A DNA stretch of 64,000 nucleotides, from the NCBI GenBank assembly GCA_023974075.1, contig JAMFTG010000531.1, positions 47,580 to 111,579 of the forward strand. The letters are read 5' to 3'. Shown here piece by piece: positions 1-64,000 of this stretch; positions within the stretch are counted from its first letter, which is position 1, and the number at the start of each line of letters is the position of its first letter. The notes below the pieces were generated by a model, which ran no database searches, was not told the origin of the DNA, and saw only the letters and a list, made by a program, of their open reading frames with translations. Source of the DNA: Chaenocephalus aceratus. Lineage: Eukaryota > Chordata > Actinopteri > Perciformes > Channichthyidae. The position numbers and the translations under genes are program-made.

Positions 1-121
1 ACGAGCAGGATTTCTCCCCCGGTTTGACTGCAAAAGACTCTGACTTTTCTCCAAGGGGATCCGCTTGAGTGTCAGTAAGTTTCCTTAAGGTGTCATAAAG
101 AGTGAGCTTTTGATTATCTAT

Positions 122-364
122 TCATGCGACGTTCACTGTTAGAATATAATGTAATACATGCCATAAAAAAGCCCGTACGAAGAGCCTGAATGTTTTACTT
201 TTCCCATTGCCCCAATTCACTCCATAAGGCCGTGTACTATTAGATTTTTTGTTGTACCCATAAAGAATCTGGTTTCTGCCCCAATTCACTCCATACGGCT
301 CCAGGCCGATCTGAACAAACGTGTTCATGGCAGACACACTACGGGGGGGCGAGAAAAGACACAT
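122..364 (-). other. Repeated motif with a doubtful small ORF (mirror 10712-10954)
   Basis: A minus-strand ORF of at most 68-80 codons is open here and in the mirrored position of the other arm. It contains the peptide PYGVNWG twice. The DNA behind it, CCCCAATTCACTCCATA preceded by CCCATAAAGAATCTGG, also occurs in degenerate form at about 1560-1600, just upstream of a promoter module. I read it as repeated regulatory DNA more readily than as a gene. No polyadenylation signal or conserved domain was seen. Confidence 0.25.
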
Positions 365-599
365 AGATAGCTACATTGGTAAGGAATCATTGATAGCTTT
401 CAGTCGAGATGGTTTCTCCAAAATGACAGGTTTTGCATACATAAAAAGTGTATCTTACAGTTCCTTTAGTTGTAGGATTGTGAACTAATGTATAATTACT
501 TTTATTAACTATAGGTTTGCATCCATTACAGTGTATCTTACAGTTCCTTTGTGAGTGAATTACACACAAATCTGCAGAGTGTCACTAATATATATATAT

Positions 600-835
600 A
601 TATATTCTTTATTTAACCAGGTAAAAAAACTCATTGAGATTAAAATATCTTTTCCAAGAGTGACCTGGCCAAGAAGGGACAGCATGCACAAAGTTACAAC
701 ATATAAAACACAGACATGAAAGGCAGACAAATACAGCTGTAAAACACAAATAAAATGGCACATTAGCCAGTCAATATGCGAAGTAAAACAAACTATTACA
801 ATCATTCAAAAACTGGCAACATTTAAAACGATATA
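600..835. repeat. Dispersed fish repeat inside the left arm (mirror about 10241-10476)
   Basis: After an AT microsatellite (about 587-605), the text beginning TTTATTTAACCAGGTAAAAA and continuing with a GACCTGGCCAAGA core matches a repeat type widespread in fish genomes. A diverged relative occurs at about 34263-34370. It sits at the same place in both arms, so it was present before the inverted duplication formed. Its family name is not certain. Confidence 0.6.
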
Positions 836-1039
836 CGAGCACTCACATCGACCAAAACTAAAAAAGTTGTACGCAGTGACTGACATTCTGTATGGGAGTT
901 CACACCCGAGCTGCTGTGGGGAGCTGAGTATATTATGGCTCTCGGGGGATGGTGGGTTAAGAGACAGATGCTTAGTTTTTGGACTGCCTCAGGGGGTTAA
1001 CGACATCTACTAAAAACAAAGTACTTCATTATCTACTTT

Positions 1040-1273
1040 TTTCAGCTTTTATACACAAAAGTGCAGGAAAATTCAGAGGATGAAGAAGCAGAAAACAGCC
1101 ATTATTCTTCACTCTTCTGTAAAACGGACAGTTTCAAGAAAGATGACACCGTGTTTATGCATGACATGCAAAATATATTGAAGCCCTATTTAAAAAAACA
1201 AGTTACAAGTATATTGTGTGAAAATATCTTTACACATAATCTGCCGAATGTCTGTAAAAAAGTCTTTAAATAA
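1040..1273 (+). CDS. Putative acidic small ORF or exon, unknown function (mirror about 9806-10035)
   Basis: An open frame of about 70 codons ends with TAA at 1271-1273 and starts with an acidic stretch (ENSEDEEAE). There is no ATG near its 5' end; the frame is open back through GTGCAG at 1061. A pyrimidine tract followed by CAG (TACTTTTTTCAG, ending about 1045) is a plausible splice acceptor, so this may be a terminal exon. The mirrored copy stops a few codons earlier because of an indel. I recognise no domain. Confidence 0.35.
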   Translation, partial: FQLLYTKVQENSEDEEAENSHYSSLFCKTDSFKKDDTVFMHDMQNILKPYLKKQVTSILCENIFTHNLPNVCKKVFK

Positions 1274-1284
1274 AAAAACTTGCC

Positions 1285-1480
1285 TTTTTAGAGTCAGAAT
1301 CCTAACGAAATCTCATCAAACAGAGTACTTTATGTTAGTGGTCCTCTTGTATACACAAAAGTGTATCTTTTCAGTAACTTTACCAGAGAATTTAAGCATA
1401 AATCTGGCAAATGTTCAAAACAGCCTTGTTTTTCACTGAAATAGCCTCAAAATCACAAACAGCCATTAAGAGTCAGGGGG
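1285..1480. repeat. Intergenic repeat module, copy 1 (mirror about 9596-9791)
   Basis: This block resembles 4600-4790 of the same arm. Shared text includes GAGAATTTAAGCATAAATCTG, GCAAATGTTCAAAACAGCCTTG-like sequence, CCATTAAGAGTCAG and CAGAGTACTTT. A TATACACAAAAGTGTATC-like element lies at about 1351. Overlapping ORFs are short and broken, so I read it as duplicated non-coding DNA. The two copies precede different genes and may have spread together with promoter modules. Confidence 0.6.
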
Positions 1481-1631
1481 TTAACTTCATTATCTACTTT
1501 TTTCAGCTTTTATACACAAAAGTGCAGGGAAGGTAGGCAGATTTAGAACACTGGGATAATACCCATAAAGAATGTGTGTTTCTGCTCCATTTCACTCCAT
1601 GAAGCCTCCAGCTTGTACAGGGGCTCCGCCT

Positions 1632-1690
1632 CCACTCAACATAACATGTCCCGCCCTCCTCACCAGAACATTTAAAAGTAAGGGGATGGA
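1632..1690 (+). promoter_or_regulatory. Promoter module 1, upstream of gene A (mirror about 9386-9444)
   Basis: CACTCAACATAACATGTCCC is followed by CGCCCTCCTCACCAGAACATTTAAAAGTAAGG. The layout (CTCAACRYAAYA block, C-rich block, then an A/T box followed by AAGG) recurs at 2553, 3336 and 4799. Here the A/T box is TTTAAAA and the gene A ATG is about 95 bases further on. TATA-box function is inferred from position and recurrence. Confidence 0.6.
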
Positions 1691-1770
1691 AATAGACGAA
1701 AATAAATACGCTCAAACTAGATAACAGGCCAGTCATTTCCAATCACTAAGGCACTTTTCAAAAAAGAAAA

Positions 1771-2477
1771 ATGGCAAAGAGAAGCATAGATATGGGTTTA
1801 ATCAGCGAGACGCCTGTGACAACGTACAGCCATCAGTCCGGAGCGCCAATCAAGAAACGAATGCAATATATGTGCCGGGTTCAGACGCCTCCAGCCGAAG
1901 AACTTCATGAAGAATGGAATCTAAAAAATGGAGATGTTTGGGGTTATGTATTCAACTATATGGCGAATTAACTGCATTTCTACAATCTGAAGAATGGAGA
2001 AACGTACGGACCCCCGCAGTGTTAAAGCGACACTGACCTCAACAGATTGTGTTAACTCTGGTGTCTTCCAGAGATCTCCACGCAACCACGGTACCGAAAG
2101 AAGTAGTGCATCAAGAAACCATAGTGGAACCAGCGGTGTACAAGATATTTGCAAAGAAAAGCAAAGAAACACAGACAGCATGCGAGATCAAAGAAGAGAT
2201 TTCATCGCCGCCCCTCAATGTGGAGGAAGAAAGAGTTATTTCCCCGCTGCCAGAAGTGAGAAGAGTCCTGACAAGCACCGTCTGGGAAACTAAAAGCGGA
2301 CCATCGGAGCGATGGTATTACCGTGCAAGCCATTTGGAGACGCTGGGGAAGGACCCCTCTGATGATTTTGTTTTGGAGACTTTTAATTCTACATGTGGAG
2401 TATTTCAGACAGCAGTGCGGGTATCATTGACTGCTTGGCTGAAAATGATTGATGGAAAAGCTACAAAGCTTAAATAA
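1771..2477 (+). pseudogene. Gene A, left copy: interrupted ORF of unknown family
   Basis: An ATG at 1771 opens a frame encoding MAKRSIDMGLISETP and containing the basic motif GAPIKKRMQY; it stops at TAA 1969-1971. The same frame would continue, but relative to the right copy the left copy has one extra C at about 2010-2015 and lacks five bases near 2050. The remainder is therefore open only in another frame (about 2049-2477). The downstream part is rich in Lys, Glu, Ser and Thr and ends in a more hydrophobic stretch before TAA. I recognise no domain. Its position behind promoter module 1 supports it having been a real gene. Confidence 0.55.
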
Positions 2478-2552
2478 CTTTTTAAACAGAGTCAGACATC
2501 GATGGACATTATACTGGTGAAAAAGAATCTCACCTTTACAGAGGACTCTGCC

Positions 2553-2612
2553 TCCCACTCAACATAACAAGTCACACCCTCCTCACCAGAGCATTTTAAA
2601 CTAAGGACCCCT
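2553..2612 (+). promoter_or_regulatory. Promoter module 2, upstream of the 42-codon gene (mirror 8459-8518)
   Basis: CCCACTCAACATAACAAGTC is followed by ACACCCTCCTCACCAGAGCATTTTAAACTAAGGAC. The A/T box (ATTTTAAACT, about 2593-2602) lies about 50 bases before the ATG at 2651, comparable to modules 3 and 4. Confidence 0.6.
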
Positions 2613-2650
2613 CAAGAAAGACATTGTGTATTCTACCTATGTAAAAAAGA

Positions 2651-2779
2651 ATGTCGGGGTTGTCTCTGTATCAAGAAGATGTGTTTAAAAATGAATTTTG
2701 TGAAAAATACCAACTGTGTGAGAGACGTCATAAAGACAGTCATTTTAACCACAGTGTTTGTACTCTACAAATGTTTTAA
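2651..2779 (+). CDS. Small Cys/His-rich protein, 42 residues, left copy
   Basis: ATG at 2651 and TAA at 2777-2779 frame 42 codons. Residues 16-37 contain Cys16, Cys23, His27, His31, His34 and Cys37, a spacing that could bind a metal ion; this is inference, and no named zinc-finger family fits exactly. A promoter module lies about 50 bases upstream and overlapping AATAAA signals lie at about 2800-2812, so the unit has promoter, ORF and polyadenylation signal within about 270 bases. The ORF is unchanged in the other arm. I cannot name a homologue. Confidence 0.5.
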   Translation: MSGLSLYQEDVFKNEFCEKYQLCERRHKDSHFNHSVCTLQMF

Positions 2780-2813
2780 GATTGTTACAAAATGTAAAAA
2801 ATAAAAATAAAAG

Positions 2814-3335
2814 GTATGGAGACTAAATTAATTCAGGTGACTCTGGCTTTATTAGGAAAACAAACATATAATACAAAGGGGTTAGGGGTTAAATGTAACC
2901 ATCGTGGACTTAATAGTCTAACAAAATACTTTTATCTGAATACATTTGTTCTTTTTAAGCGCACTTTTTGAAATTATTTATTTATTATTTTCAGTGGAAC
3001 AATCCAGTTTTTGTTAACATTAACGCTTTCTTCTCTTTTTCTTGTGTTACTAAGATACTTTTAGACATACTTTGGCGTATGCAACACTTGTTCAGATAAA
3101 CAAGGTTTTTTCTTTTCTGATAAACTTACATTTTTAGTTATTTTATGTTACCAAGATACTTTGAGATACACCCTGATGGTACGCAACTATACTTTTCTGA
3201 CTTTTTTCTGTAGAATCGTGACAAAACTATTACTTGTTCTTAAATGATGACCTATTGCTGGAGATGAGATGAAAAAGCTACAACGCTTAAAGAACTTTTT
3301 TCTAAAAACTCTCAATTCTATAATTGACTACCCCC
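2814..3335. other. AT-rich intergenic spacer between the small gene and gene B
   Basis: No ORF of useful length is seen on either strand. The sequence contains repeated phrases such as GTTACTAAGATACTTTTAGACATAC and GTTACCAAGATACTTTGAGATACAC, about 120 bases apart, an internal duplication of about 45 bases. The mirror copy occupies about 7736-8257. Confidence 0.5.
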
Positions 3336-3395
3336 ATTCAACGCAATAAGCCCTACCCTCCACTCAGCAAATCATCTAAAACGAAGGACCTCGCT
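3336..3395 (+). promoter_or_regulatory. Promoter module 3, upstream of gene B (mirror 7676-7735)
   Basis: CATTCAACGCAATAAGCCC, then TACCCTCCACTCAGCAAATCATCTAAAACGAAGGAC. The A/T box ATCTAAAAC lies about 45 bases before the gene B ATG at 3419. The downstream words GACGACCGTTGTAAACTAGCCATGG match those before gene D (GACGACCGTTAAAAACTAGCCATGG), so the 5' untranslated leader is duplicated too. Confidence 0.65.
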
Positions 3396-3418
3396 AAGAC
3401 GACCGTTGTAAACTAGCC

Positions 3419-3914
3419 ATGGAGCAGAGAAAAGCCAAGACTCCCCCGCGAGTTGCAGCCAGGAACAGAGTCCACCAGCAACACCACCATGGGGGAAACC
3501 CGAATCTTGCAATACTACAGCTGCTGATTTTGCTCCTTGGGCCAAAACGTCTCTGTTTATGGACACAGTGAAAGCGGTGTTGGTTGATATTGTGGAGAGG
3601 GTGATACATCGGTACAGAGAAGAAATATGCAACGGGTGCCGAGTCAGTCACCCCGGCCAGAGGCAACACGATTTCTGAATGACATGTCCGATTTTTACTT
3701 CAGAAACAATTACAACGCGTTAATGAAAAGACTCTGGCTCACCGACTTCATTACTGAGATCGACCAGACTCTTAATGATAAAGACATTTTCACGGATGAT
3801 TGGAGGATCCAAGGCGCTTCGGAGGCTTTTCTTCACAATCTCAAAAATTGCAGAGGCCTCAAGGAGAGACTTGAAAAGATCCATGCCGAGTTGGATGGAG
3901 AAGAAGAAGACTAA
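3419..3914 (+). pseudogene. Gene B, left copy: frameshifted ORF of unknown family
   Basis: ATG 3419-3421 follows promoter module 3. Compared with the right copy, the left copy lacks one C in a C-run (about 3445) and one T near 3673, so the frame is lost after about nine codons and regained only at about 3674; the open stretch to the stop at 3912-3914 encodes the C-terminal part. That part is acidic at the end (ELDGEEED) and looks helical. AATAAA at 3979-3984 follows. I recognise no domain. Confidence 0.5.
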
Positions 3915-3985
3915 CAACCAGCAGTTGGATGGAGAAGCCAGGGACTTGTTCGATACAGTGACTTTTTTCTTTAAGTAAAATAAAA

Positions 3986-4450
3986 ATGGGAAACTACTAT
4001 GCAAAACGCTCTGTATATATTGATCATAATGTAGTCATTACCCGTGTAATAAGTGTGATGATGGGGACGATTGAAAACAGAACGAGTAGTGACCCCTGTG
4101 TAAAAAGAATGGCTGAAGTTTGTAAACTAGAAGACATTTTGGATATAGTTCGTTCTGGCAGTACTATTCCGGGTCATTGGGAAACGATTGTAAACGAAAC
4201 ATTTAAAGTGGTCCTGGAATCTTCATTTTCCGAAACATTCTGTAACATTATCTCAGAAATGAAACAAACATCAAAAGTGTATCATGTGCTCTCATTGTAT
4301 GCTCTGTTTGTAGATGTAATGCATCTGTGTGTTGAAAACAGCATACACGTGAATATTTTGACTGAAGTGAAAAAACTCCATCACGATATCTCCAGTAATA
4401 TGGGGAATTCTAAGCTGGAGACTGTCCTGGGGATGCTACAATCAGTATAA
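3986..4450 (+). CDS. Gene C, 154 residues, intact only in the left arm
   Basis: ATG 3986-3988 directly follows the AATAAA of gene B (3979-3984), and the frame is open to TAA at 4448-4450. ATTAAA lies at 4475-4480. The protein appears all-helical with a hydrophobic segment (VYHVLSLYALFVDVMHLC) in its second half and no signal peptide. Such a plan is compatible with viral Bcl-2-like proteins, but the NWGR-type BH1 signature is absent, so this is only a guess. No separate promoter module precedes it; it may share a transcript with gene B or be reached by splicing. Confidence 0.55.
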   Translation: MGNYYAKRSVYIDHNVVITRVISVMMGTIENRTSSDPCVKRMAEVCKLEDILDIVRSGSTIPGHWETIVNETFKVVLESSFSETFCNIISEMKQTSKVYHVLSLYALFVDVMHLCVENSIHVNILTEVKKLHHDISSNMGNSKLETVLGMLQSV

Positions 4451-4599
4451 CTATTGATTTTGTGTGTGAAAAAAATTAAAAAAGTGTACATCTACATCTA
4501 AAAAACCGTTGTCATCATTATAGCAAGGGGAGCGTGTCTGATACATGTGTTTTTCAGTGTTTTTCAGTGTTTTCTGTGTGTCTGTACACACAAAGCACA

Positions 4600-4790
4600 C
4601 TTCATTATCTACTTTTCAGCTTTTTAAAAAGAAAAGTGTATCTTTCGGTAACTTTCTCAGAGAATTTAAGCATAAATCTGTCAAATGTTCAAAACAGCCT
4701 TGTTTCACTGAAATACCCTCAAAATGACAAACTGCCATTAAGAGTCAGATTCTTAACCAAATCTACTGAAACAGAGTACTTTCTACAGAT
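4600..4790. repeat. Intergenic repeat module, copy 2 (mirror about 6520-6710)
   Basis: This block resembles 1285-1480 (see that entry). It starts with TTCATTATCTACTTTTCAGC, a phrase also present near 1025 and 1488 as TTCATTATCTACTTTTTTCAGC, each followed by an A/T-rich AAAAGTG word. It lies directly upstream of promoter module 4. Confidence 0.6.
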
Positions 4791-4798
4791 GAAGCCTC

Positions 4799-4855
4799 CC
4801 ACTCAACGCAATATGTCCCACCCCACTCAGCAAATCATATAAAACTAAGGACGAC
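4799..4855 (+). promoter_or_regulatory. Promoter module 4, upstream of gene D (mirror 6455-6511)
   Basis: CCACTCAACGCAATATGTCCC, then ACCCCACTCAGCAAATCATATAAAACTAAGGAC. It contains the best TATA-like box of the set (CATATAAAAC, about 4837-4846), about 25-35 bases before the gene D ATG at 4871. Confidence 0.65.
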
Positions 4856-4870
4856 CGTTAAAAACTAGCC

Positions 4871-5638
4871 ATGGATCTGAGAAAAACCAAGTCTGATGTA
4901 GCCTGCCCTTATTATCACCAGGATAATGGATACGGGCTTAATGACTGGATGTTACAAAGTAGGGGAGAGGATGTTCCCGAAGAAGAGCTCTCGTCTATAT
5001 CATATCCATGTAAGGTCTTTAGGACAAAAGAGGACCATGATAACATGACATATGAAGAATATCTTTCTTTAAAAGATGGTATTATAGATAACCTTTATAG
5101 AAACAGTATATCTCATACCACTCGCCAAGATCGCAAACGACAATTAGCAGAAAAGACAAAAAGAAGGAAGGTGAAAAGAAAAAGAAACAAAGTGAAGAAA
5201 TTTAAACTAGAGGATGGTGTTGTAGAGCCATTACCGGATCATAATAATCTTATAGATCATCTCCCGCTAACCGACTGCTGCGAATGTGTTGAACAAATAC
5301 CAAAAGCAATGGCAGAAATTTGCTTCAGTATAATGAGAGAAAAAGCGCGATACTGTGGAATTGCCCAAATTGGCGACAGTGCCAGAATATGTATTAAAAG
5401 ACTGTTGGAGGATCTCTATTCTAGTGTCGGTTGTCATTACAGCGAAGGATACGCCAAAACGTGTGACGATATAGACAAAGCTTTTGAAGACAATTATATG
5501 GTACCTGTCCTTACAGCTAAACAAATCCTACGCCAGGTATTCAACAGACCACAAGAAGTCCCAGAAAGGATTACATTCAGAGCTAATAATGGAGAAAACC
5601 GAAGAAGAAGCAAAGCAGATTATAATCGTTGCGGGTGA
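4871..5638 (+). CDS. Gene D, 255 residues, basic nuclear-type protein, left copy
   Basis: ATG 4871-4873 is preceded by promoter module 4 and a GCC-ATGG context; the frame is open to TGA at 5636-5638. Residues 85-112 form a strongly basic patch (KRRKVKRKRNKVKKFK), a likely nuclear localisation or nucleic-acid-binding segment. A Cys cluster (DCCEC) lies near 135-139. The C-terminal half looks helical with several Cys residues. I know of no clear homologue. The gene overlaps gene E by 50 bases. The right arm keeps only the first 147 codons. Confidence 0.6.
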   Translation: MDLRKTKSDVACPYYHQDNGYGLNDWMLQSRGEDVPEEELSSISYPCKVFRTKEDHDNMTYEEYLSLKDGIIDNLYRNSISHTTRQDRKRQLAEKTKRRKVKRKRNKVKKFKLEDGVVEPLPDHNNLIDHLPLTDCCECVEQIPKAMAEICFSIMREKARYCGIAQIGDSARICIKRLLEDLYSSVGCHYSEGYAKTCDDIDKAFEDNYMVPVLTAKQILRQVFNRPQEVPERITFRANNGENRRRSKADYNRCG

Positions 5639-5998
5639 AAGGATAGAGAATTTGCATGTGATGTTAATGCATTTATCTGATATAAAAAATGCTTTCGTAT
5701 ACTTCCAAGAGACCCCTAAACATCTACTTGGGCTGTGTGAATTGAACGACAAACCGATCACTGTAAATGAAACGCGGAGAGAAGTAGCAGTGCAAATCGT
5801 TAAGTCTATTACCTTGTATGCACTACGACATTAACTTGGTCAAATGTAATATGTTTTCTATGAAAATGTGTTGAATGTTGTGTTTTTTCAATTAAACAAC
5901 CATTACAAAATGAAAATGTGTTTTATTTTTTTGCTTTCATATATAGTAATAGTATTGTAAACTAAACATTTATAGTGTATCATATGCTCTGTTTTTTA
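5312..5998. other. Single-copy loop between the palindrome arms
   Basis: This 687-bp segment is absent from the right arm. It holds the 3' part of gene D, all of gene E, an ATTAAA polyadenylation signal at 5891-5896 and an AT-rich spacer. In the right arm the truncated gene D runs straight into the spacer end, which supplies a TAA stop immediately after the breakpoint. Confidence 0.85.
5589..5834 (+). CDS. Gene E, 81 residues, overlapping the end of gene D
   Basis: ATG 5589-5591 lies inside gene D in another frame; the ORF ends with TAA at 5832-5834 and ATTAAA follows at 5891-5896. The product is acidic at the N-terminus (MEKTEEEAK) and appears helical throughout, without Cys pairs or a membrane segment. 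The 50-base overlap suggests expression from the same transcript as gene D, or by splicing. It exists only in the loop. Function unknown. Confidence 0.45.
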   Translation: MEKTEEEAKQIIIVAGERIENLHVMLMHLSDIKNAFVYFQETPKHLLGLCELNDKPITVNETRREVAVQIVKSITLYALRH

Positions 5999-6439
5999 CA
6001 TTGCTTTTGGTATTTGTTCAACACATTCGCAGCAGTCGGTTAGCGGGAGATGATCTATAAGATTATTATGATCCGGTAATGGCTCTACAACACCATCCTC
6101 TAGTTTAAATTTCTTCACTTTGTTTCTTTTTCTTTTCACCTTCCTTCTTTTTGTCTTTTCTGCTAATTGTCGTTTGCGATCTTGGCGAGTGGTATGAGAT
6201 ATACTGTTTCTATAAAGGTTATCTATAATACCATCTTTTAAAGAAAGATATTCTTCATATGTCATGTTATCATGGTCCTCTTTTGTCCTAAAGACCTTAC
6301 ATGGATATGATATAGACGAGAGCTCTTCTTCGGGAACATCCTCTCCCCTACTTTGTAACATCCAGTCATTAAGCCCGTATCCATTATCCTGGTGATAATA
6401 AGGGCAGGCTACATCAGACTTGGTTTTTCTCAGATCCAT
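5996..6439 (-). pseudogene. Gene D, right copy: truncated at the palindrome breakpoint
   Basis: The first 147 codons match left gene D, including the basic patch; the frame then meets a TAA supplied by the spacer immediately after the breakpoint at 5999. The promoter module and leader are intact, so a short basic protein could still be made. Confidence 0.7.
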
Positions 6440-6858
6440 GGCTAGTTTTTAACGGTCGTCCTTAGTTTTATATGATATGCTGAGTGGGGTGGGACATATT
6501 GCGTTGAGTGGGAGGCTTCATATGTAGAAAGTACTCTGTTTCAGTAGATTTGGTTAAGAATCTGACTCTTAATGGCAGTTTGTCATTTTGAGGGTATTTC
6601 AGTGAAACAAGGCTGTTTTGAACATTTGACAGATTTATGCTTAAATTCTCTGAGAAAGTTACCGAAAGATACACTTTTCTTTTTAAAAGCTGAAAAGTAG
6701 ATAATGAAGTGTGCTTTGTGTGTACAGACACACAGAAAACACTGAAAAACACTGAAAAACACATGTATCAGACACGCTCCCCTTGCTATAATGATGACAA
6801 CGGTTTTTTAGATGTAGATGTACACTTTTTTAATTTTTTTCACACACAAAATCAATAG

Positions 6859-7269
6859 TTATACTGATTGTAGCATCCCCAGGACAGTCTCCAGCTTAGA
6901 ATTCCCCATATTACTGGAGATATTGTGATGGAGTTTTTTCACTTCAGTCAAAATATTCACGTGTATGCTGTTTTCAACACACAGATGCATTACATCTACA
7001 AACAGAGCATACAATGAGAGCACATGATACACTTTTGATGTTTGTTTCATTTCTGAGATAATGTTACAGAATGTTTCGGAAAATGAAGATTCCAGGACCA
7101 CTTTAAATGTTTCGTTTACAATCGTTTCCCAATGACCCGGAATAGTACTGCCAGAACGAACTATATCCAAAATGTCTTCTAGTTTACAAACTTCAGCCAT
7201 TCTTTTTACACAGGGGTCACTACTCGTTCTGTTTTCAATCGTCCCCATCATCACACTTATTACACGGGT
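6859..7269 (-). pseudogene. Gene C, right copy: 5' end deleted
   Basis: The last 136 or so codons match left gene C almost exactly, but the ATG and first 18 codons are missing. The 238-bp deletion joins gene B sequence (left 3801) to gene C sequence (left 4040) with the three bases ATT shared at the junction. An accidental open frame crosses the junction from 7296. Confidence 0.7.
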
Positions 7270-7313
7270 AATCATCCGTGAAAATGTCTTTATCATTAAG
7301 AGTCTGGTCGATC

Positions 7314-7652
7314 TCAGTAATGAAGTCGGTGAGCCAGTCTTTTCATTAACGCGTTGTAATTGTTTCTGAAGTAAAAATCGGACATGTCATTCAGAAAATC
7401 GTGTTGCCTCTGGCCGGGGTGACTGACTCGGCACCCGTTGCATATTTCTTCTCTGTACCGATGTATCACCCTCTCCACAATATCAACCAACACCGCTTTC
7501 ACTGTGTCCATAAACAGAGACGTTTTGGCCCAAGGAGCAAAATCAGCAGCTGTAGTATTGCAAGATTCGGGTTTCCCCCATGGTGGTGTTGCTGGTGGAC
7601 TCTGTTCCTGGCTGCAACTCGCGGGGGGAGTCTTGGCTTTTCTCTGCTCCAT
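7314..7652 (-). pseudogene. Gene B, right copy: N-terminal part intact, C-terminal part lost
   Basis: Read from 7652, the frame is open for about 106 codons through the region where the left copy is frameshifted. It then loses register because two bases are missing near 7336 compared with left 3730. The remaining C-terminal part is removed by the 238-bp deletion between 7269 and 7270. The N-terminal 40 residues are Pro, Thr and Ser rich; the middle looks amphipathic. Each arm therefore preserves a different half of the gene. Confidence 0.5.
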
Positions 7653-8291
7653 GGCTAGTTTACAACGGTCGTCTTAGCGAGGTCCTTCGTTTTAGATGAT
7701 TTGCTGAGTGGAGGGTAGGGCTTATTGCGTTGAATGGGGGTAGTCAATTATAGAATTGAGAGTTTTTAGAAAAAAGTTCTTTAAGCGTTGTAGCTTTTTC
7801 ATCTCATCTCCAGCAATAGGTCATCATTTAAGAACAAGTAATAGTTTTGTCACGATTCTACAGAAAAAAGTCAGAAAAGTATAGTTGCGTACCATCAGGG
7901 TGTATCTCAAAGTATCTTGGTAACATAAAATAACTAAAAATGTAAGTTTATCAGAAAAGAAAAAACCTTGTTTATCTGAACAAGTGTTGCATACGCCAAA
8001 GTATGTCTAAAAGTATCTTAGTAACACAAGAAAAAGAGAAGAAAGCGTTAATGTTAACAAAAACTGGATTGTTCCACTGAAAATAATAAATAAATAATTT
8101 CAAAAAGTGCGCTTAAAAAGAACAAATGTATTCAGATAAAAGTATTTTGTTAGACTATTAAGTCCACGATGGTTACATTTAACCCCTAACCCCTTTGTAT
8201 TATATGTTTGTTTTCCTAATAAAGCCAGAGTCACCTGAATTAATTTAGTCTCCATACCTTTTATTTTTATTTTTTACATTTTGTAACAATC

Positions 8292-8420
8292 TTAAAACAT
8301 TTGTAGAGTACAAACACTGTGGTTAAAATGACTGTCTTTATGACGTCTCTCACACAGTTGGTATTTTTCACAAAATTCATTTTTAAACACATCTTCTTGA
8401 TACAGAGACAACCCCGACAT
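8292..8420 (-). CDS. Small Cys/His-rich protein, 42 residues, right copy
   Basis: This is the reverse-complement copy of 2651-2779, with CAT at 8418-8420 and the stop at 8292-8294. I see no base difference between the copies over the ORF, while longer ORFs in the arms carry frameshifts. The upstream promoter module (8459-8518) and downstream polyadenylation signal are also preserved. Confidence 0.5.
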   Translation of the reverse strand: MSGLSLYQEDVFKNEFCEKYQLCERRHKDSHFNHSVCTLQMF

Positions 8421-8593
8421 TCTTTTTTACATAGGTAGAATACACAATGTCTTTCTTGAGGGGTCCTTAGTTTAAAATGCTCTGGTGAGGAGGGTGTGAC
8501 TTGTTATGTTGAGTGGAAGGCAGAGTCCTCTGTAAAGGTGAGATTCTTTTTCACCAGTATAATGTCCATCGATGTCTGACTCTGTTTAAAAAG

Positions 8594-9304
8594 TTATTTA
8601 AGCTTTGTAGCTTTTCCATCAATCATTTTCAGCCAAGCAGTCAATGATACCCGCACTGCTGTCTGAAATACTCCACATGTAGAATTAAAAGTCTCCAAAA
8701 CAAAATCATCAGAGGGGTCCTTCCCCAGCGTCTCCAAATGGCTTGCACGGTAATACCATCGCTCCGATGGTCCGCTTTTAGTTTCCCAGACGGTGCTTGT
8801 CAGGACTCTTCTCACTTCTGGCAGCGGGGAAATAACTCTTTCTTCCTCCACATTGAGGGGCGGCGATGAAATCTCTTCTTTGATCTCGCATGCTGTCTGT
8901 GTTTCTTTGCTTTTCTTTGCAAATATCTTGTACACCGCTGGTTCCACTATGGTTTCTTGATGCACTACTTCTTTCGGTACCGTGGTTGCGTGGAGATCTC
9001 TGGAAGACACCAGAGTTAACACAGCCCAATCTGTTGAGGTCAGTGTCGCTTTAACACTGCGGGGTCCGTACGTTTCTCCATTCCTCAGATTGTAGAAATG
9101 CAATTAATTCGCCATATAGTTGAATACATAACCCCAAACATCTCCATTTTTTAGATTCCATTCTTCATGAAGTTCTTCGGCTGGAGGCGTCTGAACCCGG
9201 CACATATATTGCATTCGTTTCTTGATTGGCGCTCCGGACTGATGGCTGTACGTTGTCACAGGCGTCTCGCTGATTAAACCCATATCTATGCTTCTCTTTG
9301 CCAT
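8594..9304 (-). pseudogene. Gene A, right copy: one in-frame stop
   Basis: Read from 9304 downward, the frame stays open for 66 codons, meets one TAA at 9104-9106, and then stays open for about 169 more codons to a stop at 8594. Both arms share the TAA, so it predates the duplication or is functional (two ORFs or readthrough). The frameshifts of the left copy are absent here. The protein has no recognised domain; the KKRM motif is also found in a fragment at about 11163-11215. Confidence 0.55.
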
Positions 9305-11162
9305 TTTTCTTTTTTGAAAAGTGCTTTAGTGATTGGAAATGACTGGCCTGTTATCTAGTTTGAGCGTATTTATTTTCGTCTATTTCCATCCCCTTACTTT
9401 TAAATGTTCTGGTGAGGAGGGTGGGACATGTTATGTTGAGTGGAGGCGGAGCCCCTGTACAAGCTGGAGGCTTCATAGAGTGAAATGGAGCAGAAACACA
9501 CATTCTTTATGGGTATTATCCCAGTGTTCTAAATCTGCCTACCTTCCCTGCACTTTTGTGTATAAAAGCTGAAAAAAGTAGATAATGAAGTTAACCCCCT
9601 GACTCTTAATGGCTGTTTGTGATTTTGAGGCTATTTCAGTGAAAAACAAGGCTGTTTTGAACATTTGCCAGATTTATGCTTAAATTCTCTGGTAAAGTTA
9701 CTGAAAAGATACACTTTTGTGTATAAAAGAGGACCACTAACATAAAGTACTCTGTTTGATGAGATTTCGTTAGGATTCTGACTCTAAAAAGGCAAGTTTT
9801 TTTATTTAAAGACTTTTTTTACAGACATTCGGCAGATTATGTGTAAAGATATTTTCACACAATATACTTGTAACTTGTTTTTTTAAATAGGGCTTCAATA
9901 TATTTTGCATGTCATGCATAAACACGGTGTCATCTTTCTTGAAACTGTCCGTTTTACAGAAGAGTGAAGAATAATGGCTGTTTTCTGCTTCTTCATCCTC
10001 TGAATTTTCCTGCACTTTTGTGTATAAAAGCTGAAAAAAGTAGATAATGAAGTACTTTGTTTTTAGTAGATGTCGTTAACCCCCTGAGGCAGTCCAAAAA
10101 CTAAGCATCTGTCTCTTAACCCACCATCCCCCGAGAGCCATAATATACTCAGCTCCCCACAGCAGCTCGGGTGTGAACTCCCATACAGAATGTCAGTCAC
10201 TGCGTACAACTTTTTTAGTTTTGGTCGATGTGAGTGCTCGTATATCGTTTTAAATGTTGCCAGTTTTTGAATGATTGTAATAGTTTGTTTTACTTCGCAT
10301 ATTGACTGGCTAATGTGCCATTTTATTTGTGTTTTACAGCTGTATTTGTCTGCCTTTCATGTCTGTGTTTTATATGTTGTAACTTTGTGCATGCTGTCCC
10401 TTCTTGGCCAGGTCACTCTTGGAAAAGATATTTTAATCTCAATGAGTTTTTTTACCTGGTTAAATAAAGAATATATATATATATATATTAGTGACACTCT
10501 GCAGATTTGTGTGTAATTCACTCACAAAGGAACTGTAAGATACACTGTAATGGATGCAAACCTATAGTTAATAAAAGTAATTATACATTAGTTCACAATC
10601 CTACAACTAAAGGAACTGTAAGATACACTTTTTATGTATGCAAAACCTGTCATTTTGGAGAAACCATCTCGAGTGAAAGCTATCAATGATTCCTTACCAA
10701 TGTAGCTATATATGTGTCTTTTCTCGCCCCCCCGTAGTGTGTCTGCCATGAACACTTTTGTTCAGATCGGCCTGGAGCCGTATGGAGTGAATTGGGGCAG
10801 AAACCAGATTCTTTATGGGTACAACAAAAAATCTAATAGTACACGGCCTTATGGAGTGAATTGGGGCAATGGGAAAAGTAAAACATTCAGGCTCTTCGTA
10901 CGGGCTTTTTTATGGCATGTATTACATTATATTCTAACAGTGAACGTCGCATGAATAGATAATCAAAAGCTCACTCTTTATGACACCTTAAGGAAACTTA
11001 CTGACACTCAAGCGGATCCCCTTGGAGAAAAGTCAGAGTCTTTTGCAGTCAAACCGGGGGAGAAATCCTGCTCGTTCCTTCAACCTTCCTTACAGAGCCC
11101 CTCCTCCAACACACGTGACCAGAAAGAGGCTGTACTCTAAACCCACCCACCCCTATGCCCGC

Positions 11163-11215
11163 ATTCGCTTCTTGACTGGCGCTTCAGACGGTTGACTCGG
11201 TAAGTTGAATTGTCT
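11163..11215 (-). pseudogene. Fragment resembling the KKRM region of gene A
   Basis: On the minus strand this encodes SEAPVKKRMRA followed by a stop, against SGAPIKKRMQYM in gene A; the underlying bases also match. Its flanks differ from gene A, so it looks like a diverged paralogue or a leftover of the cassette beyond the recognised end of the right arm. Confidence 0.4.
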
Positions 11216-11344
11216 GTCTTTTTTTAAATTTATTTTGAGTATATCTCTATATGGTCTTACCCCAGTCATTTATACAGATGCTTTCATCAGTGTGAAATTG
11301 CACATCAAGGGCAGGCATCAAAAGCTAATTAGATTAGACAACAA

Positions 11345-11968
11345 AGGGCTAATATAATTGCTGGCAATTACTCCACTCTCAGGGTCAGGGGTCAAATACC
11401 TTAGCTATCTTAATTGATGTAATAAATGGCCTGTACACAAAAAGGGGGTGCCTGGGGGTAATATAATTGAGGGGCAATTACTCCACTCTCAGGGTCAGGG
11501 GTCGAATACCTTAGCTATCTTAATTGATGCAATAAATGGCCTGTACACAAAAGGGGGGTGCCTGGGGGTAATATAATTGCGGGGCAATTACTCCACTCTC
11601 AGGGTCAGGGGTCGAATACCTTAGCTATCTTAATTGATACAATAAAAAGCCTGTACACAAAGGGGGTGCCTGGGGCTAATATAATTGCGGGGCAATTACT
11701 CCACTCTTGGGTCAGGGGTCAAATACCTATAACTATCTTAATTGCTACAATAAAAGGCCTATACACAAAGGGGGTGCCAGGGGCTAGTCTAATTGGGGCA
11801 ATTACTCCACTCTTGGGTCAGGGGTCAAACACCTATAACTATCTTAATTGCTACAATAAAAGGCCTGTACACAAAGGGGGTGCCTGGGGCTAGTCTAATT
11901 GGGGCAATTACTCCACTCTGGGGTCAGGGGTCAAATACCTATAACTATCTTAATTGCTGCAATAAAAG
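11345..11968. repeat. Tandem repeat, six units of 106-110 bp
   Basis: The phrase CAATTACTCCACTCT recurs at 11365, 11475, 11585, 11693, 11799 and 11905, in units that also contain GGGTCAGGGGTCAAATACC, AATTGATACAATAAA and GCCTGTACACAAAGGGGGTGCC. The first three units differ from the last three, so the array grew in steps. ORFs here simply follow the repeat. Confidence 0.9.
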
Positions 11969-12826
11969 AATCACTCCGGGGGGTCTTTCACGCCAATCTG
12001 ACATCAAAGGACTTAGCTCATTTGCATAAGTAGGGAGAGGTATGACCTGTCACACCACCTGTCACTTTTTTGAGGAAAGGAACATTTGTACTACTACTAA
12101 CCATCGATAGGCTTTGCAAATTGGGAGGGACATTTCCCCTGATTTTAATGAGGTGCATCCTGCAGGCCTTCCCAACACCTGTGGCTTTCAAAGCTGCCCG
12201 CGCTGATTCCCTGTGAGATAGCGTTTTGGTATCTCCCAAATGAAACTCCACCCCTTTGTTGGTTTTGGGACGTGCAACGTGTTGCTTCGTCCTCTCTTCA
12301 CGCCCGGACCGGGAGGTCGGGGCAGCCTGTGAACAAGGCCAGGAGTAGGCATACTCCTGACATTACTCATATGATATGGCTTCGTATGGTAATGTATTAT
12401 ATGGTATTGCATTATTACCGTTTATGATTAAAACAGATTTTTGTTTAACCCTCGTCCTAGTTGTTTTGAGTGTTTCTTCTTTTAAAGCAAGCTCATTAGG
12501 AACGGCGCGGAGAAAAGTAGTCCCAAACTCCTTCAGGCTCCATACATTTTTATTATCGATATAGTTGGATTCCACCTTCATGATTATGGATCTGTGAGTG
12601 AATTGTTTTCTAACACGACCCTTTTATTTATATTAGGTCTTAAAGTGTTTGCATTAATTAGGGCGTGGTCACGTTGATGGACACGTACATGCCTCACTGT
12701 CAGCTAACAGCAACTTGTCCACTCTGCTAGGCTACAACCATAGAGGCTACAACGTTAGTTAGTCATAGTACTGTACTTGACCCTTTAGCTTTAGCCGTGT
12801 TCGTGGTGATATACCAGACAATTAAG
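11969..12826. other. No recognised gene
   Basis: Unique-looking sequence with short ORFs on both strands (for example 12018-12251 minus), none with a recognisable domain. Imperfect repeats of TATGGTAATGTATTATATGGTATTG occur near 12385. It leads into the possible first exon of the THAP remnant. Confidence 0.4.
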
Positions 12827-21769: not shown

Positions 21770-23691
21770 TTGAATGAACACTGTGTGTCTGGCTGTGAGA
21801 GTCCAGCTCAGGTGGAGCAGGGGCTGCAAATGGACAGACTGTGGTCCTTGCATATTAATTTCCCACATTTGCAGCAGGTGCTGCAAACTCTTCTGTCCAT
21901 GCAGAAGTGGCACTGCCTCCTGCTCTTCCGTTCACTGATGAGAGGGGCCTGCAGCAGCACCCTGCAGATCTGACACCATTGTTGCAGCGGCTGATGAGCG
22001 GGGAAGGCGCCCTCTCTTCTTGATGTGTGGGGTCACCAGCATTTCTCCCACCTCTTCAATGAAGAGCCTCCTCCTGTATGGTTTCTGCTGCTGCCAGGAT
22101 GGCTCCATTGATGTCCACAGGACGTAGGCGTTGTAATGGGAAATGTCAACCAGGTTGTGGAAGAGGGCATTGGCCAGCGATTTGTTCTCCTCCTGCAGGA
22201 GTAGGTGGTAACAACCTAACAAAAACATAAAACAAGACAATTTGAATAAATTATTCCAAGCATTTTCTCTCATGATGCAAATATTAATTATTTTATAGGA
22301 AAATGCTCATTTTAAAAAAAACCTACATATATTTCAGACAAGAATATAAGAGTAAGAATACATGTGTGCCTACCTTATCAAGGTTGTAGACACCTCCTTT
22401 GCATCGGTTGTAGTCTTTGATTATGACTGGCTTTCTCTTCATTTCGTCGCTTACGTCTGGACGTGTGTTTCGTGCTTAGAAGCAGCACATTCCTGCCCCG
22501 TAGAGGGATGTAAGAGACCAGTGTGTGGGTCTTCGTAAAGGCAAAGGTGGAGGAGAGGATCGCTCTCGCTCTTGCCTGGAGCAAAATAGGGGGAAGCTCA
22601 GGCTTGTTTCGGCGAATTGTGCCAACCAGGGCCAGTTTTCTCCTGAGCAGCTCCTCAGCCAGTGCGAAGGACGTGAACAAATTGTCACAGGTAATGATGT
22701 GTCCCTAGAGCCCCTCTGTCATCTCCAGGACCACCCTCATCCCCTGGTTGACTTCAGAAGGATTGCCAGCTGCTTTGCCTGTATACACCTGCAGTCTCCA
22801 GGCGTATGATGATTTTACATCACAGTTTGCCCAAATCTTTATACCTTATTTGGCCGGCTTTTTTGGCATGTACTGCTTGAAGCTGCACCTGCCTCTGAAT
22901 GGGATGAGCTGTTCATCCACGCAGACGTCGCTGAATGGGCTGAACTGCATCGGCAGGCGGTGCGTCCACATATCCCAGACTTTGCGGAAGGCAGCCAGCT
23001 TGTCATCACGGCGCCGCGGTCGGGATAGCTTGTCGTCGAACCGCAGTGTTTGGCTGATCTGGTGAAACCTCCTGTGGGACATCGTGGCTCGGAAAATGCT
23101 CCGTCCCGATTTCTCACTCCAGAGGCTGAGGGTCGATTCATTTTTTGATCTGTAAACACCGGCCAAAATGAGCAGCCCCACGTAAGCCTGAAGTTCCTCT
23201 GTGTCCATATCTCGCCACTCTGCAATTGACCGTCTCCCATGCAGGTTTTTCATGGACACAATATGCTGCAGGATGTCATCTGTCATCAGCAGTGTAAAGC
23301 TGGATGCCGGGTCACTGATTCGGGTGACAGCATAGTGTGTTGGTCCCGGGGTCAAACGTCTGGCTGCTGGGACGTAGCGGAGCGTCTCAGTGTTTGTGGG
23401 AGACCAAAACACTTTACCATTTTTTGAAGTCCATCCTGCAGCTGTTTCTTCCAACTCCCCTCCGGTCTCAGTTTCAGATGAGTCTGAGTTGGACTCTAGC
23501 TGGTCTGTTCCCACCTCTGAGGCGTCCTCCGTGGACTCTGAGGCGTCTTCTGTGTCAGCCTCACAGTCCACGGAGGATGATGAGGAGCCAGAGCTTCCTG
23601 TGTGCTGTAATACCTTGCCATCTCCAAAAAGACTACTCCTGCACTGATAGTAATACTTATAACCATGGCTGCAGTGCACCTGCATAAACAA
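21770..23691 (-). pseudogene. piggyBac transposase (PGBD4-like), broken
   Basis: From 23691 downward the protein begins with a long acidic Ser/Glu-rich region, then the DDE domain (HGRRSIAEWRDMDTEELQAY, LSLWSEKSGRSIFRATMSHR, VCDVDEQLIPF-type segment with the first catalytic Asp). A TAA at about 22843 interrupts just after QYMPKKPAK; downstream text (CDNLFTSFALAEELL and KPVIIKDYN) continues the transposase but with another stop (TAG near 22707) and frameshifts. An intron-like gap (about 22218-22375) is bounded by GTAGGC and TTGTTAG. The Cys-rich C-terminus lies near 21790-21920. The element cannot make active transposase. Confidence 0.85.
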
Positions 23692-24584
23692 CCTGAGCGA
23701 GAACCAAAACTTTGTTTTGCGAAAACCAAAACAAAGTTTTGGTTCTCACAACTCATTGTTTTTATTATTGAATTAGATTATTACGCAGTGTGGCCTTCTA
23801 AGAGAAAAGTCTTTTGAAGTTGGGCACAAACACGCGCACACACACACACCATTATCCAACATCAAAAGTGACACACACATATCATTTCAGTAGCATGTGA
23901 CCCTTGCAGAAAACAGTAAAAAGTGTGACATTTTGCTGCAGGCTACAAAGGGTTAAAATTATCGCCATCTTGTAGACAAATATAAAACATTGAAATTGAA
24001 AGCTAGAAGTTCAAAATTAAATCTTAACATCAAGGAAATCAAGAGTTTATGATAAGATAAATGTGGCGTCAAAAAAAGCGTTTTCAATGGGGCATTTTTT
24101 GCCGCTAGGAACTAATGTGTCGGTTTTTGTGTAGCTTAGCCATTTTAGGCTAATTTAAAAAACTGAGACGACAATTCAATATACAACTAAAAAATAAAAT
24201 CCTCAATATTCATTCAACACAGCCTGAACATGAAAACCCGAATGGCTGAAAAATGGCCCCAGGGACTCTTAAGGGTTAATTATTTCAGGCATGAAGAGGA
24301 GTAAACACGTGGGCGTTCATTTTAGGTTATGGCCTGGAAAAGGGGCGGTTAGGATTTGCCTTCAATTGAGGGCGAGGGAGTATCAGGCAGCGAACCGAGG
24401 GGCCATCGGAGAGCGCCAACCTACCCCAGAAATGAGAACATGGGGCACTGGCTGCGTTAGGGAATAAGAGTCTTGGATCCTACTGGGACCGGCTGTAAGA
24501 TCGAGTGCTCGGGCCATCCTTGTTCACCACCTCTTCAGTAGTAAACCAGGAGTCAGTAATTTTGTAACGGTTTTATTGTGAAAA

Positions 24585-25043: not shown

Positions 25044-25644
25044 TATAATCTGTGCATTTATTGGTTAGCTAAATGTCTTTAGATTCTGTAGTGTATCACT
25101 TTTTAAAAGAATTGTACATAAACTGAGAGTGAGCCGTTTTCCAGCTAACTAGTTAGCCGCTAACTAGTTAGCCACTAACGTTGTGGAGGAGTGCACGTGG
25201 CATTTACGTTACTGACTTGAAACTTTCCTTTGTAGAGCAACATCTCACTGAACTGTGGCTAAACTATGGGATCTGTCTGTTTATTCCATGGTTTGCAGGT
25301 ATGTTTATTTTGAACTGTTAAATGTTTTATTGAATACTGTTCATCTAAGTAATTTGATTAATCTTTATTGTCACAATTACAAACTAAATAGTTTTATGTT
25401 TGTAATAAATGTTATTGAGTTTCTTTATATTTAGAATCCTTTTTCTCTAAACAAATGATACCACTATACGATCACTGTAAAAGTATTAGAGGATTCTTAG
25501 CTTTGGAGCAACATCTCACTGAACTGTGGCTAAACTGTGGATCTGTGTGTTTATTCCATGGTTTGCAGAATAAACTAATTGATATCTCAAACTGACTCCG
25601 GTGCAGTACAAAAAGCAACAGCAAAGCAGGACCCAAGTGTCACA
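25044..25644 (+). mobile_element. 5' LTR of Ty3/gypsy element
   Basis: 601 bases matching 32222-32822 with only a few differences, ending GTGTCACA and followed by a primer-binding site. It contains two versions of one 60-base segment (AGCAACATCTCACTGAACTG to CATGGTTTGCAG): at 25235 it is bounded by TTTGTAG and GTATGT, as an exon would be; at 25507 it is joined directly to GTATTAGAGGATTCTTAGCTTTGG upstream and AATAAACTAATTG downstream. No TSD is evident. Confidence 0.88.
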
Positions 25645-25662
25645 TTGGTGCCGTGACCCGTC
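25645..25662 (+). other. Primer-binding site of the Ty3/gypsy element
   Basis: TTGGTGCCGTGACCCGTC follows the LTR directly; the TGG start and position are as expected for a tRNA-primed LTR element. The tRNA was not identified. Confidence 0.7.
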
Positions 25663-25870
25663 GACTCTCCGGCTGGATGGTGATTTCTTCAGCCCGGCCC
25701 GGGGACTGTTTCTGCTGTTGCTGCTCCTCCGTGTTGTCAGGTGGACACAGTACTTTGGCTCTATATGTATAGCACATGTGGCGTTTGTTTTAGTTTTTTT
25801 TTTTTATCTGCTACTGATCTGTGCTTGACATTTGTATTTTGAATATCTTTGTCGGTTTTTTTTTTTCGTG

Positions 25871-49100: not shown

Positions 49101-49202
49101 CCAGGAATAAGTGTCTGAAAGTCGGGGAAGATTACTCAGGGTATACAGGACTTTCACCCTCCCCCGTTGGCACTTAGCCGTTTTTCGAGAATCATCCATA
49201 CA

Positions 49203-57200: not shown

Positions 57201-57214
57201 GAGAACGCCCTTAA

Positions 57215-63064: not shown

Positions 63065-63720
63065 CAAGGCAAGGCAAGCCAAGTTATTTATATAGCACTT
63101 TTTCAACGCAAGGCAATTCAAAGTGCTTTTACAAAAATGAAAGACATTAAGCATTAAAAAGAAAAGCTAATAAAATAAACATTAAAAGGAAAATGTTACA
63201 GTGCAGTCTAAGATATGAATAGTTCAATTAAACATTAAAAGAAAAAGTTACATGGATAAAAGTTACAGTGCAGACTAAGATATGAATAGTTCAATTAAAA
63301 AGCAGCGACAAAAGAAAAGTCTTCAGGCCTGGATTTAAAAGTAATAAGAGTTGCAGCGGACCTGCAGGTTTTCAGGGAGTTTGTTTCCAGATATTTGGAG
63401 CATAATAACTGAACGCTGCTTCTCCATGTTTAGTTCTGACTCTGGGGACAGAAAGCTGACCAGTCCCTGAAGACCTGAGAGATCTGGATGGTTCATAATT
63501 TATCAGGAGGTCAGAAATGTATTTTGGGGCCTAAACCATTCAGTGCTTTATAAACCAGCAGCAGCATTTTGAAATATATTCTTTGACACACAGGAATCCA
63601 GTGTAAAGACTTCAGAGCAGGAGTGATGTGATCCACTTTCTTAGAGTCAGTGAGGACTCGAGCAGCGGCGTTCTGAATCAGCTGCAGCTTCCTAATAGAT
63701 GTTGTAGTGAGACCTGCGTC
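63065..63720. repeat. Dispersed fish repeat abutting the third viral-like copy
   Basis: TTATTTATATAGCACTTTTTC, GGCAATTCAAAGTGC, GTGATGTGATCCACTTTCTT and AGCAGCGGCGTTCTGAATCAGCTGCAG form a very common fish interspersed repeat. Homology to the cassette starts within a few bases of its end, so the repeat either inserted into the cassette or marks its boundary. Confidence 0.7.
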
Positions 63721-63724
63721 CTCA

Positions 63725-64000
63725 TCACCACACTTATTAAAAGGGTATTGACTACATTATGATCAATATATACAGAGCGTTTTTGCATAGTAGTGTTCCC
63801 ATTTTTATTTACTTTAAAGAGAAAAAGTCAATGTATTGAACAAGTCCCTGGCTTCAGTCAACTGCTGGTTATTAGGCTTCTTCTTCTCCATCCAACACTC
63901 GGCATGGATCTTTTCAAGTCTCTCCTTGAGGTGTCTGCAATTTTTGAGATTGTGAAGAAAAGCCTCCGAAGCGCCTTGGATCCTCCAATCATTCGTGAAA
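63725..64000 (-). pseudogene. Third, diverged copy of the virus-like cassette (genes B/C)
   Basis: Reading the minus strand, this matches left-arm positions about 3788-4065: the end of gene B, the AATAAA/ATG overlap and the first codons of gene C. By eye about one base in ten differs, including indels that break the frames. The match runs to the last base of the window, so the copy continues beyond it. It covers the segment that is deleted from the right palindrome arm. Confidence 0.88.

What the first reader, a model, noticed from the sequence alone, without database searches (positions are those of the whole stretch)
1..11075. A multigene virus-like cassette arranged as a giant, nearly perfect palindrome
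Two arms of at least 5.1-5.3 kb, each carrying the same run of compact small genes with their own promoters and polyadenylation signals, face each other around a 687-bp loop. I recognise none of the proteins. Gene density, repeated promoter modules and multiple copies in the region suggest an endogenised DNA virus or large virus-like element with unknown accessory genes (adintovirus/Maverick-like, adenovirus-like and alloherpesvirus-like origins remain open). Seen: the palindrome and ORFs. Inferred: viral origin.
Basis: partly seen in the sequence, partly recalled or inferred. Interest (0 to 1): 0.88.

Follow-up and report, generated by a model that had tools for sequence, protein, structure and literature searches.

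The report
Palindromic non-autonomous Maverick satellite in fish
The giant palindrome is a 13-kb mobile element that looks like a mirror-image offshoot, lacking a working polymerase gene, of Maverick (Polinton) virus-like transposons; it occurs in many copies in this fish genome and is probably carried by full Mavericks with the same ends.

Summary
The palindrome is real and is one copy of a dispersed family. It is larger than reported: 13,199 bp, from 1,101 bp left of the window to 12,098, between 6-bp target-site duplications (AACCAT) and (AGT)n//(ACT)n ends. These are Maverick/Polinton features. The terminal 141 bp also bounds three polymerase-B-bearing elements in the same 1.06-Gb genome; the one sampled has an open polymerase frame and an ATPase and shares ~1.4 kb of end with the window copy. 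Five of ten loci examined carry a polymerase-B remnant, up to 99.5% identical to full genes; gene D has a relative at a Maverick's right end. No intact core gene was seen in the frames scanned. All ten loci (nine insertions) share one fold-back breakpoint, so one founder spread. Its loop-specific stretch gives 150 matches. Arms of one copy are mostly more alike than copies are to each other. Best reading: a copy-back, defective-interfering-like satellite of Mavericks, mobilised in trans. Ends and founder are shown; trans-mobilisation and the way arms are kept alike are inferred. I saw no description in the papers searched.

The parts
1..5318 (+). left arm of the palindrome (the arm continues 1,101 bp left of the window, C531:46479-47579)
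5319..5991 (.). single-copy loop: 3' part of gene E, gene F, and a fold-back junction with patches resembling gene C
5992..12098 (-). right arm of the palindrome, ending in (ACT)3
12090..12098 (.). (ACT)3 terminal motif of Maverick type (partner (AGT)3 at C531:46479)
   Evidence: motif described in PMC8097293
12099..12104 (.). 6-bp target-site duplication AACCAT (its partner lies just left of C531:46479)
11363..11906 (.). subterminal ~110-bp tandem repeats (mirrored at the left end outside the window)
10676..12098 (-). outer arm sequence shared with the left end of a polymerase-bearing Maverick (93-98%); mirror of the element's first ~1.5 kb
1771..2474 (+). gene B, left arm; frame broken in this copy (open pieces 1771-1971 and 2037-2474)
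   Evidence: without stops in copies C37, C21, C6b
8597..9304 (-). gene B, right arm; frame broken
2663..2919 (+). remnant similar (78% DNA) to the 3' end of the C6 Maverick's adenovirus-endoprotease-like gene
   Evidence: the protease label is weak (Peptidase_C5 E 0.069, below cut-off)
8152..8408 (-). same protease-like remnant, right arm
3419..3914 (+). gene D, left arm; frame broken here, open at 165-187 aa in 12 of 19 start contexts of the loci examined
7314..7652 (-). gene D, right arm, 112-aa remainder
3986..4450 (+). gene C, left arm, 154 aa open
6859..7296 (-). gene C, right arm, 145 aa with altered N-terminus next to the 238-bp deletion
4871..5638 (+). gene E, full 255 aa, running from left arm into loop
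5996..6439 (-). gene E, right arm, cut at residue 147 by the fold-back junction
5589..5834 (+). gene F, 81 aa, in the loop only
63717..64000 (-). partial second copy (gene D/C boundary, 91%) at the end of the contig

Best explanation
The element is a non-autonomous, giant-palindrome derivative of a Maverick/Polinton. Founding (inferred from the junction): during replication of a linear Maverick-type genome the polymerase switched strand inside gene E and copied back to the end it came from. The product carries the same Maverick end and the same accessory genes (B, D, C, E) twice in inverted order, with E's 3' part and F in the loop and no intact replication or capsid gene seen. [quoted passage not shown] Helper (inferred): Mavericks with near-identical ends in the same genome supply polymerase, integrase and capsid in trans, as for a defective-interfering genome or satellite. 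Arm homogenisation (pattern shown, mechanism open): the two arms of a copy are mostly kept alike, either by gene conversion in the chromosome or because a displaced single strand folds into a long hairpin that is repaired or copied.
For: Maverick ends: (AGT)n//(ACT)n and a 6-bp duplication at 7 of 7 loci where both ends were in hand, of 10 fetched (6 perfect, 1 with one mismatch; C531 and C97 are one insertion, so 6 insertions). Control: 40 deliberately mismatched flank pairs gave 0 perfect, 1 with one mismatch, 39 with two. Such ends characterise vertebrate Mavericks. Relatives: the terminal 141 bp matched 40 places (40 of 364 candidates scored); three end pairs enclose polymerase-B matches by coordinates: C6:11653759-11668723, C22:876795-891948, C61:104991-121148. 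Pieces of the C6 one have an open polymerase frame (PF03175, 6.9e-44) and an ATPase (Pox_A32, 5.8e-8); its left end shares ~1.4 kb with the window copy (93-98%) and its right end carries a gene-D relative (tblastn 5e-13). Derivation: C21, C6b, C17, C15 and C37 (5 of 10 loci) carry a truncated polymerase B. Two were compared with 15 polymerase loci: C21 is 90.3-99.5% identical over ~430 bp (98.4% to the C6 Maverick's gene), C37 86.8-96.8% over 597-910 bp. One founder: same junction at 10 of 10 loci, nine insertions. Copy number: 150 matches of the loop-specific part of gene E (150 of 212 candidates scored; some split or paired at one locus). Arms: within-copy substitutions 0-1.25% against between-copy means of 1.83% and 1.47%; partner arm nearest in 13 of 16 and 14 of 16 arms.
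Against: Trans-mobilisation and protein-primed copy-back were not observed. The polymerase remnant points towards the end, whereas in the C6 Maverick the gene points inward, and the protease-like remnant also sits differently, so the arm is a mosaic and not simply an end of the Maverick sampled. No Maverick carrying B, C, E and F was found: listed E/C hits were not near full polymerase genes (by eye). The C6 Maverick shows no clean 6-bp duplication (flanks, by eye). Between-copy distances overlap within-copy ones (minima 0.40% and 0.09%), and in 3 of 16 and 2 of 16 arms another copy is nearer than the partner. In one region the two contigs of the same insertion (C531, C97) differ by 0.72-0.99% while the arms within each differ by only 0.27% and 0.18%: this favours gene conversion after insertion over homogenisation during replication. 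The gene-C-like patches at the junction (49 bp 90%, 24 bp 96%) are only suggestive: 49 of 200 random 80-mers of the inner arm also have a second match. pN/pS is about 1 for C and D, so the genes may be passengers.
Confidence: 0.8

Rival explanations
1. A second genome component: the palindrome is a useful partner segment of the Mavericks, supplying accessory genes in double dose, and not a parasite.
For: Arms carry accessory-type genes with repeated upstream modules; E lies in a 365-codon open frame at many loci; a D relative is also a Maverick gene; D occurs as two allele types, mixed between copies and even between the arms of one copy.
Against: pN/pS 1.05 for C (105 pairs) and 1.00 for D (66 pairs) among copies, hence no sign of purifying selection; many copies are broken, including the one in the window.
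Confidence: 0.12
2. An endogenised autonomous DNA virus of unknown family.
For: Compact intronless frames with repeated upstream modules.
Against: No replication or integration gene recognised in the window frames scanned; polymerase only as a truncated remnant in sister copies; ends are those of Mavericks in the same genome. Capsid genes were not specifically tested.
Confidence: 0.04
3. Palindromes formed repeatedly in the chromosome from solo Maverick fragments, not mobilised as units.
For: Long palindromes can form in chromosomes (general knowledge).
Against: Same breakpoint at 10 of 10 loci and 6-bp duplications outside the whole palindrome.
Confidence: 0.02
4. Assembly artefact.
For: Long palindromes are a known product of hairpin reads (general knowledge).
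Against: Facing pairs at 11 assembly positions (by eye); arms differ by substitutions and a 238-bp deletion; two contigs, C531 and C97, show the same insertion.
Confidence: 0.01

Closest known systems
Vertebrate Maverick/Polinton elements
   Same: (AGT)n//(ACT)n ends, 6-bp target-site duplications, terminal inverted repeats, accessory genes near the ends, size class (described range 12.7-24.6 kb, PMC8097293 section 7)
   Different: inverted repeat covers almost the whole element (arms 6.1-6.4 kb against 46-1,447 bp in that paper); no intact polymerase B, ATPase or protease seen; same accessory genes in both arms
Copy-back / snap-back defective-interfering genomes of linear viruses (recalled; for adenovirus incomplete particles only passages and a reference entry were seen)
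   Same: one genome end duplicated in inverted order around a breakpoint; core genes lost; presumed helper dependence
   Different: here it is inherited in the germ line at many places with target-site duplications; interference was not tested
Foldback/Galileo transposons (recalled)
   Same: very long inverted repeats with internal tandem repeats
   Different: ends and 6-bp duplication are of Maverick type; Mavericks with the same ends lie in the same genome
Teratorn (piggyBac-alloherpesvirus, PMC5601938, passages only)
   Same: virus-derived mobile element of fish, with long inverted repeats
   Different: 180 kb, piggyBac ends; here Maverick ends, 13-15 kb and no herpesvirus gene seen

Membership tests
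Maverick/Polinton | (AGT)n or (AG)n end motif with inverted termini | tested here: met
   motif
Maverick/Polinton | 6-bp target-site duplication | tested here: met
   6 of 7 loci perfect, 1 of 7 with one mismatch (two of the seven are one insertion); 0 perfect in 40 mismatched pairs
Maverick/Polinton | intact protein-primed DNA polymerase B | tested here: not met
   none in the window frames scanned and no DNA match to the polymerase loci; truncated remnant at 5 of 10 loci
Maverick/Polinton | integrase, ATPase, protease genes | tested here: not met
   no Pfam match above cut-off in 8 window frames of the element, nor in 5 frames of copies C21 and C6a apart from the polymerase remnant; only a protease-like 3' stretch
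Maverick/Polinton | major and minor capsid genes | tested here: inconclusive
   no match seen, but no dedicated Maverick capsid profile was run
Defective-interfering / satellite genome | derived from helper, same ends, core genes lost | tested here: met
   capsid loss not specifically tested and the exact parent not found
Defective-interfering / satellite genome | helper dependence and interference | not testable with these tools
   needs experiments
Adintovirus (integrated) | polymerase B, integrase and capsid genes (recalled) | tested here: not met
   polymerase and integrase not found in the window frames scanned; capsid not specifically tested
Teratorn / piggyBac-herpesvirus | piggyBac ends with TTAA duplication (recalled) | tested here: not met
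   duplications are AACCAT, GGGGAA, TAGGTA, GATGGG, GGCCTA and AGCCTA/ACCCTA
Foldback-type transposon | its own characteristic target duplication and transposase relatives | not tested
   only the shape resembles it; recalled

The most novel reading that the evidence does not exclude
A germ-line-inherited palindromic satellite of Maverick viruses: a single copy-back accident became a family with well over 100 matching places, apparently more than the polymerase-bearing loci (rough reading). It lives on their polymerase and integrase, keeps its arms alike, trades end segments and variable gene-D alleles with its helpers, and may limit them as a heritable defective-interfering agent.
Probability: 0.26. 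Interest if true: 0.85.

Novelty: new variant of a known kind. Interest (0 to 1): 0.64.

Why it matters
Mavericks are thought to be viruses with protein-primed replication, yet their particles had not been observed when the 2021 phylogenomic study was written (abstract start seen). A palindromic family sharing one fold-back breakpoint would be inherited evidence that Maverick genomes replicate as linear molecules with strand switching, and that defective satellites of such viruses can persist in a vertebrate germ line. It also gives a large set of sister copies in which arm homogenisation and exchange with helpers can be measured.

Tried and rejected

Literature: no description of a palindromic or satellite-like Maverick in the listings (titles and abstract starts only). 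PMC8097293: section 7 and passages; PMC5601938, PMC11071296 and PMC12090768: passages only; PMC10522714: start of abstract only.
Full report
What is there. The window lies at C531:47580-111579 of a 1.064-Gb genome in 3,032 contigs. The sequence at 1-11075 is an inverted repeat with a ~673-bp loop. The left arm continues 1,101 bp beyond the window and the right arm to 12,098. The full element is 13,199 bp, starts with AGTAGTAGT, ends with ACTACTACT and sits between AACCAT duplications. Near both ends lie ~110-bp tandem repeats. Arm differences are few; the right arm lacks 238 bp and its gene E stops at residue 147.

It is a family. A 1.28-kb query from the inner arm gave 81 matches (40 of 1,444 candidates scored), including facing pairs at 11 assembly positions: C531, C97, C21, C22, C6 twice, C17, C14, C15, C16 and C13; three more (C859, C17:7.0M, C1146) have a 258-bp second arm (pairs read by eye). 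C531 and C97 share flanks and target site, so they are one insertion in two contigs. Seven further facing pairs show (C5:16.49M, C13:11.17M, C7:34.80M, C6:14.45M, C8:16.48M, C10:8.25M, C990; by eye, from a list cut short of 247 matches). The loop-specific part of gene E gave 150 matches (150 of 212 candidates scored); some are fragments or lie twice at one locus, so the number of elements is lower but well over 100. Twenty-nine rows share one score (200.0 bits), which hints at a recent burst.

It has Maverick ends. I fetched ten loci; seven had both ends inside the fetched stretch. All seven have a 6-bp duplication, six perfect and one with one mismatch; flanks of different loci paired with each other gave 0 perfect of 40 (1 with one mismatch, 39 with two). 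The 2021 survey of vertebrate Mavericks reports (AGT)2//(ACT)2 ends and 6-bp duplications, terminal repeats of 46-1,447 bp, and accessory regions beside the core modules.

Its relatives are Mavericks of the same genome. The polymerase-B profile gave 134 matches, several in open frames above 1,000 aa. The terminal 141 bp of the palindrome matched 40 places (40 of 364 candidates scored), and three end pairs enclose polymerase matches: C6:11653759-11668723, C22:876795-891948 and C61:104991-121148. Only the C6 element was sampled, in pieces: polymerase B (6.9e-44), ATPase (Pox_A32, 5.8e-8) and a weak, below-cut-off adenovirus-endoprotease match (0.069). Its left end shares about 1.4 kb with the outer arm of the window copy at 93-98% (85-99% for the other copies compared), and its right end carries an inward accessory gene related to gene D (5e-13). 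Copy C6a carries that gene, open at 220 aa, in both arms, within a 1.43-kb stretch aligned to the Maverick's right end at 92.5%. So palindromes and Mavericks exchange end segments, or share recent ancestry of them. The C6 Maverick itself shows no clean 6-bp duplication (flanks, by eye).

Traces of the parent. C21, C6b, C17, C15 and C37 (5 of 10 loci) contain a truncated polymerase B (PF03175 1e-7 in C37 and 2.5e-12 in C21). Two of the five were compared with 15 polymerase loci: C21 reached 99.5% over 429 bp and C37 96.8% over 908 bp; the lowest matches were 90.3% and 86.8%. A 3' protease-like stretch at 78-82% is in the arms of C531, C21, C15 and C22, not detected in C6a. The orientation of these remnants differs from that in the C6 Maverick, so the arm is a mosaic whose exact parent I did not find.

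One founder, arms mostly homogenised. At all ten loci the truncated gene E ends at the same place and runs into the same junction sequence, with small indels. The junction resembles two patches of gene C, but second matches are frequent in this repeat-rich arm (49 of 200 controls), so a templated insertion is only suggested. Arms of one copy differ by 0-1.25%, while copies differ by 1.83% and 1.47% on average in two regions, with overlap (minima 0.40% and 0.09%). The partner arm was the nearest relative in 13 of 16 and 14 of 16 cases, C531 and C97 not being compared with each other. Because these copies descend from one palindrome, the arms should be at least as old as the split of the copies; their likeness therefore points to homogenisation. 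In one of the two regions the two contigs of the same insertion (C531, C97) differ by 0.72-0.99%, more than the arms within either (0.27% and 0.18%); in the other region they differ by 0.13-0.26% (arms 0.00% and 0.13%). This favours gene conversion after insertion, though a duplicated locus instead of two alleles is not excluded. Copy C22 is an exception in gene D, whose two arms carry different alleles.

Genes. B, C, D, E and F have no known domain above cut-off (the PDB searches covered C and E only). Relatives of C, of E and of the D relative exist in other short public contigs, and one is a hypothetical protein of the icefish Champsocephalus esox. The genome size and contig number are close to a published Chaenocephalus aceratus assembly (1,065.72 Mb, 3,135 scaffolds; abstract start of PMC10522714); this is a lead to the host, not a test. 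C is open in 15 of 22 start contexts and D in 12 of 19, with pooled pN/pS of 1.05 and 1.00; the two D allele types differ with dN 0.20-0.21 and dS 0.18-0.21 in the three pairs computed. So there is no sign of constraint among copies, and the function of the genes stays open.

How it most likely works. Shown: Maverick ends and target duplications, one founder for the loci examined, many copies, shared ends and a shared gene family with Mavericks of the same genome, arms mostly alike. Inferred: the founder arose by a strand switch and copy-back in gene E; the copies are replicated and integrated by Maverick enzymes in trans; gene conversion, or hairpin formation of displaced strands, keeps the arms alike. 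This is how a defective-interfering or satellite genome works. It is not filed as a Maverick, since intact core genes were tested and not met.

Noticed in passing
window 25044-32521: Retroelement with 99%-identical direct repeats at both ends and an open 1,514-aa pol frame with reverse transcriptase, RNase H and integrase domains.
   Followed up: partly
window 22849-23745 (-): piggyBac-type transposase fragment (PF13843, 6e-35; the piggyBac label is recalled); no link to the palindrome seen.
   Followed up: no
window 42555-43370 (-): Fragment of a retroviral-type envelope gene (TLV_coat, 6e-6).
   Followed up: no
window 46991-47770 (+): BED finger / Hermes-type DNA-binding domain of a hAT-like transposase.
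   Followed up: no
window 47867-59215: Large 227-bp and 258-bp minisatellite arrays, with GC up to 70%.
   Followed up: no
L019/L020 (C22) and L005 (C18), gene D: Gene D occurs as two allele types roughly 35-43% different in protein between otherwise similar neighbours, mosaic in C18 and different in the two arms of C22.
   Followed up: partly
L015:2669-3328 and L046:3-371: D relative with a C-x2-C ... H-x-C pattern; C115 is invariant and C112 nearly so in 11 sequences. A zinc site is a guess from the pattern.
   Followed up: partly
P0007 N-terminus: A relative of the D family carries a PLDLS stretch, which recalls the CtBP-binding motif of E1A proteins (from memory).
   Followed up: no
C531 against C97 (L011, L012): Two contigs hold the same insertion in opposite orientation; they may be two alleles or a duplicated locus.
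   Followed up: partly
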